Below are positions 6,801 through 11,863 of a stretch of 64,000 bases of DNA, one piece after another (position 1 is the first letter of the stretch; each line of letters starts with the position of its first letter). Source of the stretch: Nannobrachium achirus (Eukaryota; Chordata; Actinopteri; Myctophiformes; Myctophidae); assembly GCA_963921795.1 (NCBI GenBank), contig OY997655.1, positions 13,382,230-13,446,229 on the forward strand. Direction: 5' to 3'. Below the pieces are notes generated by a model. The model saw nothing but the letters and a program-made list of their open reading frames with translations. It did not search any database and was not told the origin of the DNA. The position numbers and the translations under genes were made by a program.

Positions 6801-9800
6801 TCAGAATTTCCCGTTTCACAAATTCTCAAATGTATGAAATATTATGAAAATAGCAGATCTACAAGCTCATCTACAAGTAACACATTGTGAGCTTGTAGAT
6901 CGGCTATTTTCGAATGGCCGAAATGTATATAGGGTTTAAAGGGATATTTCACTTATTCGGAGGGTGTCAGGAGTCACCAGAAAAAAGGAAAGTTGTTTTC
7001 ATTGAATCTATCATGGTTAAAATGGAGTTTATAATGGGTTTGTATAGGAAGGTCCTGGAAGGGGAAAAATGGGGGGAAATGAACATCAAATATCTAAATA
7101 CTGAATGAAGAAATTCAAAAACTGTCCTGGGTGTTTCCAAAAGCCTGATTAGACGATAAAATGACCAAAAGTTATTTTGAAAGTGGAATATCCCTTACCG
7201 TATCTTTTGTACTAATAATCAAATTCTACTTCTAAGTAGTAACTAGTAACTAAAATTATCAAAAGATGGTGGGGGGCACGGTGGTGCAGTGGTTAGCACT
7301 TCGCCTCACAGTTAGAAGGTCTTTGGTTCGATTCCCGCCAGGGGAAGCTGTGGGCGCTGGGGGCGTGCTCCTCCACCCGCGTCATCAGCACCCACACCCT
7401 AGGTGGGGTTGGCGATAGGGCCTCTCTTTGGTGAGTTTGCATGTTCTCCTTGGGCATAGGCCCTCACACAAAAACATGCAGTAGTCCTGGTTTCTATACT
7501 ACCTCCCCCTAGCCAGCCGGGTGCTCCCCAATGTCCCCTGGCGCGGCAGGGGGAGAGCGGAAACCAGGACTACAGGTTAGGTAGAGAAAAATGGGTTACA
7601 AAAACCGTGGGCTAAAAAAATATAAAAGAAAGAAAAAGATGGTAGTGGAATAAAAGTACAATATTTGCCTTTCATATGTAGAAGTAAAAGTTCTGAAAAT
7701 AGGAAATAGCCTAGGCTCCAGTAAAGTACAAAAATACTTCACAATTACAGTAGCTTACTTGAGTAAATGCACATAGTTACTTTACACCACTGCAGCTGCT
7801 CTTAAATCAGAGCAGTCGTGTTGAGACGAAAACACGTTTAAAGCCTAAAATATTTCAACAAAAGGGTTTATTTAAATAGTTATACTGTATCTATACATGT
7901 ATATGTCACGGGGATATAGAGAAACAGGGAGATCGAGAAACGGAGCGCTCGCCGTGCTGCACGGCGCCGTGCGACACTGCAAGCGGCGCGAAGGCCAGCG
8001 GTCCTTGGTCCTGCTCTTCGCCCCCGAGCGCCGCCGGCCGCGCGAGTTACGAAGCCGTGGTGAATGCAATCGTTATATTTATGCCCAGGCCGTAAGGCCT
8101 GGGCAAGCGCACGATAAACGCCGAGCTAGGCTAGTAAATAAAGAAAGAGCGTCGCAAACGAGTGACGTCAGCGCGACAAAACAAGCGCTCTTACCACGCT
8201 TTCACTGAGTTACCCGAAGTCCCTGTAACATATATATAGATAAGGTATGTATAACTTATACATACCTTTAATCAGACTTTTGGCTGCTCTCAGCTCCTGC
8301 TGGGTGTGTCGTAGTTCAACTCTCTGCTCGGCCATCAGAGCGCTCATCTCTCTCAGCGCGGCATGGATGTCAGCCTGACAGCCTTGTTGGGTGAAGGTAG
8401 AGGCTGCTGCCTTGTCTCCCTGTGTGCAGTGGGGGAAAGTTACTCAGTACATTTAACTCTAGTAGGCTACTGAACAATTTTGAGGCACTTTTTTACTTTA
8501 CTTGAGCCTGTCCTTTTTTCAATACTTTATACATCTAGGCCTACATGTTGTACTTTTTAGTACATTACAATAATTTCAAAAAAGTACTTACACTTTGTAG
8601 ATCTCTCTCTCTCTCTCTCTCTCTCTCTCTCTCTCTCTCTCTCTCTCTCTCTCTCTCTCTCTCTCTCTCTCTCTCTCTCTCTCTCTCTCTCTCTCTCTCT
8701 CTCTCTCTCTCTCTCTCTCTCTCTCTCTCTCTCTCTCTCTCTCTCTCTCTCTCTCTCTCTCTCTCTCTCTCTCTTCAGTGTATATATATATATATATATA
8801 TTGCCCAAAGTCCCTATAACTATGGGTGCTACTGGTTGCTGACGCTCAAGATCAAGTTCAGACGTGTGATGTGTCCCAAGAACTGATGTCCAAGCCTTCC
8901 AATAAGGTTCAACATAAATGTCATTTATTCTTTGTTGCTATAAGTCCTATACTTCAGCTAATACAAGAAATAAACAAACTTGTATCACCAGCCTCAGTCA
9001 CACACACAGTCAAAGAACTGTGTGCCTCTAACATCAACAACACCTGTGCCTCATTACAGAGCATGTTAAATAGACAATTGGTAATAGGCAATTAGGGCGT
9101 GACCATGTTCCAACTTCAGTGACATCATTAATAGGCAAATGGCTGAAATGGCTCTTACACCCGCCCCCAATTGCAACTGGCGGGAGACATGCAATTCAAA
9201 AACAAAAAATACAAAGAGCCATAATAAACAAAGCCAAACAAAACGCAAAATACAAATGCAAACAATAACTTAGGCAGTATTCATAATGCATAAAGCAAAC
9301 TCAAAGTTTTAAATTTGTACTTTCACAAAAAGACCAAAAAGGATCCAACTAGTAGTTGGGCATCATTTTAGCCACCAGACAACTGATCAAGTCTCTCCCT
9401 GTGCTGCTGTGCTGGTCGCAGCGTTGGCCATGATACAGTTTGTCTGTGGCTCTTTGCACCAATAGACTTTGATCCTTTTCTTTCTTGAACTCTCCCATCT
9501 TTCTTTCTTCCTCTTTCTTTGGCTCCGCCATCTTTCTTTCTTCCTCCTCTTTCTCTGGCTCTGCCATTTTCGTTTCCTTCTCCTTCTGGAGCTTTTAGCT
9601 GTTACCTGCATGGCGGCAGGCTTCTTGGCTTTCACAGCTTTCTTAGCAGCAGGCTTCTTCTCCCTCACTGCTTCTTTCTTGTTCATTTTGAAAGAGCCAG
9701 ATGCAGCACCTTTAGCCTGAACCACAGGGCTTTTTGCTACCAGGCTCTTGATGCGGGCCTGGTCCATCTTTACATCGTAGCCACCAGTAGCCAGAGCCTT

Positions 9801-11863: not shown

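What the first reader, a model, noticed from the sequence alone, without database searches (positions are those of the whole stretch)
8802..11550. Recently inserted LTR element that carries a linker-histone-H1-like gene instead of gag-pol
Seen: two apparently identical 358-bp TG...CA repeats in a (TA)n target, a polypurine-like tract beside one of them, and a single 450-codon frame in the matching orientation whose residues about 289-375 read as an H1 winged-helix domain plus basic tail. Known: identical LTRs mean recent insertion, and non-autonomous LTR elements rarely carry host-type coding genes. Inference: the element has captured a histone-H1-like gene and moves with another element's enzymes, possibly using the protein to package or target nucleic acid. 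The first 135 residues match nothing I know and may be a gag-like part.
Basis: partly seen in the sequence, partly recalled or inferred. Interest (0 to 1): 0.82.

Follow-up and report, generated by a model that had tools for sequence, protein, structure and literature searches.

The report
Self-priming retroelement with captured linker-histone gene
A small, recently mobile LTR retroelement family in what is probably a fish genome carries, in place of the usual enzyme genes, one protein with part of a host linker histone fused into it, and three diverged lineages of the family all hold this fusion.

Summary
The window has a 2.75-kb minus-strand element whose LTRs do not differ over 358 bp. At least 8 places share its leader; 5 of these 8 show exact 5-bp target duplications. 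Two further lineages carry the protein at 45-64% identity over matched pieces. The full LTR is 363 bp; the window's 3' LTR lacks the last 5. The primer-binding site is complementary to 11-13 nt inside the LTR in 8 of 9 copies tested, and both sides change together across three lineages: Tf1/sushi-like self-priming. The 450-codon frame holds an H1 segment (E 3.7e-14 to H1.3) akin to the genome's own H1 genes. Every copy read lacks part of the globular region, one copy most of it, so 'H1 domain' overstates it. Six of 8 lineage-1 copies keep the frame open; only one of two lineage-2 copies and no lineage-3 copy does. The N-terminal part matched nothing in Pfam or PDB. No partner with enzymes was identified; places sharing LTR end or 3' end could not be read. 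The protein's role, Gag-like binding of nucleic acid, is inferred.

The parts
11188..11550 (-). 5' LTR, 363 bp, TGTAAGAG...CACTACA
   Evidence: identical to the 3' LTR over 358 bp
8802..9159 (-). 3' LTR, 358 bp; lacks the terminal CTACA seen in five other full copies
11399..11411 (-). putative self-primer CAGTTCTTTGACT in the 5' LTR (LTR position 140-152)
11172..11184 (-). primer-binding site AGTCGAAGAACTG, complementary to the self-primer with one G.U; fully Watson-Crick in L009, L010, L012, L016
10740..11187 (-). leader between 5' LTR and the frame; found whole at 8 places of the genome
9387..10739 (-). single open frame, 450 codons, first ATG at codon 25 (10667)
10320..10667 (-). N-terminal part, present in three lineages, no match in Pfam or PDB, perhaps helical (weak model)
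9892..10023 (-). 33-bp tandem repeat coding (A)RPETTSPGVAA; by eye an amplified piece of the H1 N-terminal region (APRPKKTGPSVA)
9582..9896 (-). H1-derived segment
9470..9581 (-). basic Arg/Lys/Trp tail from a 33-36 bp tandem repeat, no DNA match to the three host H1 genes compared
9160..9172 (-). polypurine tract AATTGGGGGCGGG next to the 3' LTR

Best explanation
A family of non-autonomous, self-primed LTR retroelements (working like the Tf1/sushi group of Ty3/gypsy) that once captured the 5' part of a replication-type histone H1 gene in frame behind an unrelated helical/coiled-coil frame. The chimera is translated as one very basic protein. The most likely job, inferred, is Gag-like: the N-terminal part self-associates and the H1-derived plus Arg/Lys tail binds the element's RNA or cDNA, while reverse transcriptase and integrase come from an autonomous partner that recognises the shared LTR ends, PBS and PPT. 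Shown: LTRs, target duplications, copies, open frames in most lineage-1 copies, H1 ancestry, primer/PBS co-change. Inferred: self-priming itself, translation, packaging role, partner, a single capture.
For: LTR pairs with 0/358, 0/363, 0/363, 1/363, 2/354 and 2/363 differences in window, L009, L010, L016, L014 and L012. Exact 5-bp duplications in 5 of 8 lineage-1 copies and at 6 of 13 single-LTR places. Primer/PBS complement of 13 nt in L009, L010, L012, L016, 12 in L059, L060 and L041, 11 in L044, reached in 0-7 of 2000 shuffles; 9 copies were tested, L014, L018 and L023 were not; the sequence differs between lineages and pairing is kept. Frame open in 6 of 8 lineage-1 copies and in L059. Distinct indels relative to the window in 4 open copies (L010, L014, L016, L018): 12 of 13 multiples of three in the frame against 11 of 27 in internal non-coding DNA, Fisher one-sided p 0.002. 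Pooled pN/pS within lineage 1: 0.65, 0.29, 0.39, 0.55 for N-term, coil, H1 core, tail. Window against L059 dN and dS: H1 core 0.24 and 0.74, tail 0.18 and 0.75, N-term 0.50 and 0.93.
Against: No reverse transcriptase, integrase or partner was seen. The N-terminal part has no Gag match and its single-sequence model is poor (pLDDT 41.8). H1 parts are repeatedly deleted; L009 keeps little of the globular region. Frames are broken in L012 and L023, in the second lineage-2 copy L044 and in both lineage-3 copies. Tandem units of 33 bp favour in-frame indels without selection. In the window copy the longest perfect primer match is 8 nt, which 104 of 2000 shuffles reach. The TATTTAA box lies 52 nt upstream of the primer, so the primer may not be the exact RNA 5' end. 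The PBS was not compared with the host's tRNAs. L061's tail runs in another reading frame. N-term dN/dS is only weakly below 1; window-L018 and L016-L018 N-term pairs have pN above pS.
Confidence: 0.5

Rival explanations
1. Passenger capture: the H1 piece hitch-hikes, and mobility needs only the LTRs, PBS, PPT and leader, as in TRIM/LARD-type elements; the frame is open because the copies are young.
For: H1 region deleted differently in each lineage and mostly lost in L009; LTR pairs nearly identical, so little time for stops; frames broken in 2 of 8 lineage-1 copies, 1 of 2 lineage-2 copies and both lineage-3 copies.
Against: Lineages 1 and 2, about 66-71% identical in aligned DNA, both hold an open frame of the same order; in-frame indels and dN/dS mostly below 1.
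Confidence: 0.33
2. Chromatin-targeting protein: the H1 segment tethers the pre-integration complex or transcript to nucleosomes or DNA, as chromodomains are thought to do in chromoviruses (recalled).
For: H1 ancestry and constrained substitutions in the H1 core.
Against: No copy read has a full globular region; no site preference was tested.
Confidence: 0.12
3. A host gene with an H1-like domain that was flanked by LTRs by accident.
For: The N-terminal part has no retroelement match.
Against: 8 places with the same leader, 5 with own target duplications, and further lineages with own LTRs.
Confidence: 0.02

Closest known systems
Tf1/sushi group of Ty3/gypsy (self-primed LTR retrotransposons)
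   Same: PBS complementary to the element's own LTR; LTR ends of TGT...ACA type. Self-primers in this group of yeast and vertebrates: PMC6317226 (passages read); Tj1 in PMC4600332 (passages read)
   Different: No gag-pol; LTR ends do not fit the published Sushi motif TGTYANR...CNTNACA (by eye; the 5' end fits the rGmr1 motif TGTNANR, the 3' end does not fit CGTNACA; PMC3601003, passages and one section read)
TR-GAG, LARD and TRIM non-autonomous LTR elements
   Same: LTRs, PBS and PPT without pol; TR-GAG keeps one Gag-like frame (definitions recalled; TR-GAG and TRIM seen only in the listing)
   Different: Here the single frame holds a host histone segment, and its N-terminal part is not a recognisable Gag
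Gene-capturing LTR elements such as maize Bs1
   Same: Host gene piece captured inside LTRs (recalled; Bs1 seen only as a counted term in the listing)
   Different: The captured gene is a linker histone, and three diverged lineages hold the chimera
Replication-type histone H1 genes of the same genome (C4, C5 clusters)
   Same: 64-68% protein identity to most listed; 77% DNA identity over 300 nt to the C4:60.24 Mb gene
   Different: Element copies lack parts of the globular region and the H1 C-terminal end

Membership tests
LTR retrotransposon | paired LTRs with TG...CA ends and target-site duplication | tested here: met
   5 of 8 lineage-1 copies with exact 5-bp duplication; the window copy itself cannot be judged in (TA)n
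LTR retrotransposon | PBS and PPT beside the LTRs | tested here: met
   a PBS by complementarity to the LTR, not to a tRNA
Tf1/sushi group | self-primer in LTR complementary to PBS | tested here: met
   11-13 nt in 8 of 9 copies tested, co-changing in three lineages; the window copy has one G.U
Tf1/sushi group | primer lies at the 5' end of the RNA | not testable with these tools
   RNA start unknown; TATTTAA box 52 nt upstream
Tf1/sushi group | pol of Ty3/gypsy type, placed by RT tree | tested here: not met
   no pol in the element; hence 'works like', not 'is a member'
Autonomous LTR element | RT and integrase | tested here: not met
   one long frame, no such domain
Linker histone H1 | sequence relation to H1 | tested here: met
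   no Pfam hit
Linker histone H1 | complete globular winged-helix domain | tested here: not met
   gaps in all copies read; the model is too weak to judge the fold (pLDDT 53.7)
Retroviral or retrotransposon Gag | capsid or zinc-knuckle domain match | tested here: not met

The most novel reading that the evidence does not exclude
A retroelement lineage has replaced the nucleic-acid-binding part of Gag with a captured linker histone, so that a chromatin protein packages retroelement RNA or cDNA, or guides its integration, and this chimera has lasted through at least three diverged lineages of self-primed non-autonomous elements.
Probability: 0.3. Interest if true: 0.8.

Novelty: new variant of a known kind. 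Interest (0 to 1): 0.62.

Why it matters
A host histone recruited and kept by a mobile element would be a natural experiment on what retroelements need from their nucleic-acid-binding protein, and on whether chromatin proteins can be turned to a parasite's use. The co-changing primer and PBS in short, recent copies also give a compact case for self-priming in what is probably a fish genome.

Tried and rejected
Pfam on the whole frame, the H1 piece, the N-terminal part and the tail: nothing above cut-off. PDB profile search with the N-terminal alignment: best E 0.37, not significant. Single-sequence AlphaFold2 of the N-terminal part and the H1 piece: pLDDT 41.8 and 53.7, so no fold search was made. 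IMG/VR scan with the N-terminal alignment: no relative. RNA fold of 77 nt of the LTR from the primer on: not better than shuffles, z -1.02. The C18 6.7-8.4 Mb cluster as partner: L062 and L063 show related LTR pieces and the 3' end, and no partner pol was recognised by eye. Assembly duplication and host-gene readings rejected by the copies. Literature: nine searches of the held PMC library listed no paper that I recognised as describing an H1-bearing LTR element (titles and abstract starts only); subscription journals and Repbase were not searched, so it may be catalogued elsewhere. PMC4340606 was looked at for self-priming (one passage) and gave nothing of use.

Partner search: the PPT+LTR-start pattern and the LTR-end+PBS pattern did not complete, nor the N-terminal protein query or the integrase family query. 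The leader and 3'-end DNA searches were: 13 places align over LTR end, PBS and on to 75-97 nt past the LTR (12 on C1, 1 on C16) and others share only the 3' end, but their internal parts could not be read.

Full report
What is there. On the minus strand the window holds a complete small LTR element, 8802-11550. Its two LTRs do not differ over 358 bp. Comparison with other copies shows that the LTR is 363 bp long and ends in CACTACA; the window's 3' LTR stops 5 bp early, next to (TA)n, so its own target duplication cannot be judged. One frame of 450 codons fills most of the middle; the first ATG is codon 25.

It is a family. An LTR search of the same genome scored 40 of 173 candidates and listed 40 matches, a lower bound. 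The leader search scored 40 of 78 candidates and shows 8 places with the full leader, the window included. These are window, L009 (C11), L010 (C5), L012 (C9), L014 (C14), L016 (C15), L018 (C199, 5' end cut) and L023 (C1, rearranged). Five of the eight have exact 5-bp target duplications: L009, L010, L012, L014, L016; that of L009 lies in a GATT repeat. LTR pairs differ at 0 of 358 (window), 0 of 363 (L009, L010), 1 of 363 (L016), 2 of 363 (L012, whose LTR is 361 bp) and 2 of 354 (L014; one search printed 9 with the wrong length, mended). So the family moved recently (inference). Of 13 further loci treated as single LTRs, 6 have exact 5-bp matches at both ends (L011, L013, L015, L019, L025, L026).

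Further lineages. A protein search (94 of 2058 candidates scored, 100 matches) found more distant relatives on C1, C6 and C15. Lineage 2 is one insertion on C1 with its own LTRs, present twice by segmental duplication, since L059 and L044 share flanks and target duplication; its LTR pairs differ at 1 of 354 and 3 of 351 positions plus 16 and 22 gap columns. Lineage 3 is L041 (C6) and L060+L061 (C15, read as two parts of one element about 8 kb apart). The protein is 45-64% identical to the window's over the pieces matched, with the same order of parts. Only L059 of these has a complete open frame: L044 is split, L041 lacks the N-terminal part in frame, and L060/L061 are interrupted.

Self-priming. 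After the LTR comes no TGG-type site (by eye; host tRNAs were not compared). The sequence there is complementary to a stretch inside the LTR. Lineage 1: CAGTTCTTTGACT in the LTR, AGTCAAAGAACTG in the PBS. Lineage 2: CAGTTTTGTAAC and GTTACAAAACTG. Lineage 3: AGTCTTTTGACT and AGTCAAAAGACT. Both sides changed together. Shuffled LTRs reach the match in 0 (L009, L010, L012), 1 (L016, L060), 2 (L059), 4 (L041) and 7 (L044) of 2000 trials; for the window, with one G.U, the longest perfect match is 8 nt and 104 of 2000 shuffles reach it. In L041 the primer was taken from the 3' side and the PBS from the 5' side; L060's LTR start was set by length; L014, L018 and L023 were not in the test. Self-primers are described for the Tf1/sushi group of yeast and vertebrates (PMC6317226, passages) and for Tj1 (PMC4600332, passages). 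A TATTTAA box lies 52 nt upstream of the primer in both window and L059; the RNA start is not known.

The protein. The H1 relation is real: E 3.7e-14 to H1.3, 64-68% identity to most of the host H1 genes listed on C4 and C5 and 77% DNA identity over 300 nt to one of the three compared. By eye, against host H1, the H1 part seems to begin near the H1 start codon, and the 33-bp repeats coding (A)RPETTSPGVAA resemble an amplified piece of H1 APRPKKTGPSVA. The H1 end is replaced by a repeat-built Arg/Lys/Trp tail. The lineages share the order and similar junctions, which fits one capture before they split (inference). The globular region is damaged in different ways: window, L016 and L018, and L023 by eye, keep most; L010, L012 and L014 lack 12-13 more residues and L009 46; lineages 2 and 3 have other gaps. 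So an intact H1 fold is unlikely, and Pfam finds none. The window model is too weak to judge. The host gene L047 shares one 4-residue gap with lineages 1 and 3; recurrence at a short direct repeat would explain it, but so would a separate origin of the H1 part, and I did not test either.

Selection. Six of 8 lineage-1 copies have open frames: 393-467 codons stop to stop in five, and 450 from TTG in the window; L012 and L023 are broken. In L009, L010, L014 and L016 the frame ends at KVYW, some 23 codons before the window's stop. Distinct indels against the window in L010, L014, L016 and L018: 12 of 13 multiples of three in the frame, 11 of 27 in internal non-coding DNA (p 0.002). L009 was left out because its alignment through the repeats broke up, L012 because its frame is broken (4 of 7 in frame), and L023 was not aligned. 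The frame start was set 2 nt off. Indels shared by copies were counted once by hand, and 33-bp repeats bias the result. Pooled pN/pS in lineage 1 is 0.65, 0.29, 0.57, 0.39 and 0.55 for N-term, coil, repeat, H1 core and tail, over pairs that are not independent. Between window and L059, dN and dS are 0.50 and 0.93, 0.31 and 0.53, 0.24 and 0.74, 0.18 and 0.75 for N-term, coil, H1 core and tail. Against this, some close N-term pairs have pN above pS (window-L018, L016-L018) and L061's tail, out of frame, has dN near dS. So substitutions in the H1 part are constrained although deletions are tolerated; constraint on basic, Lys-rich content would fit both (inference).

How it most likely works. Inferred: the RNA starts near LTR position 140, folds back on the PBS to prime cDNA, and uses RT and integrase from a partner. 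The basic chimera acts as a Gag-like nucleic-acid binder.

Novelty. Nine literature searches listed no H1-bearing LTR element that I recognised; Repbase was not searched. I rate it a new variant of a known kind: a non-autonomous, self-primed LTR element with a captured host gene.

Noticed in passing
window 34389-35885 and 36537-38147, plus strand: Two closely similar long frames (498 and 536 aa, coiled-coil-like by eye) in tandem, no Pfam match at E 0.001.
   Followed up: no
window 44610-45920 minus; 46806-48332 plus; 19237-20463 plus: Uninterrupted frames with TPR, PUB+UBX and TRIM (RING, B-box, coiled coil) domains.
   Followed up: partly
G000 C18:6.68-8.39 Mb: Eleven of the 40 scored LTR matches lie in this 1.7-Mb stretch: a cluster of LTR-derived pieces at 79-86% identity.
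   Followed up: partly
L063, frame from base 1396, plus: A 1266-residue open frame that by eye looks like a LINE ORF2 (endonuclease/RT); not tested.
   Followed up: no
L047, host H1 gene at C4:60.24 Mb: Lacks four residues of the globular domain compared with the other host H1 genes printed, the same gap as in element lineages 1 and 3.
   Followed up: no
LTR position 140-153: The self-primer can itself form a short hairpin; predicts it for the window LTR, though the 77-nt stretch folds no better than shuffles. By eye most other copies could do the same.
   Followed up: partly
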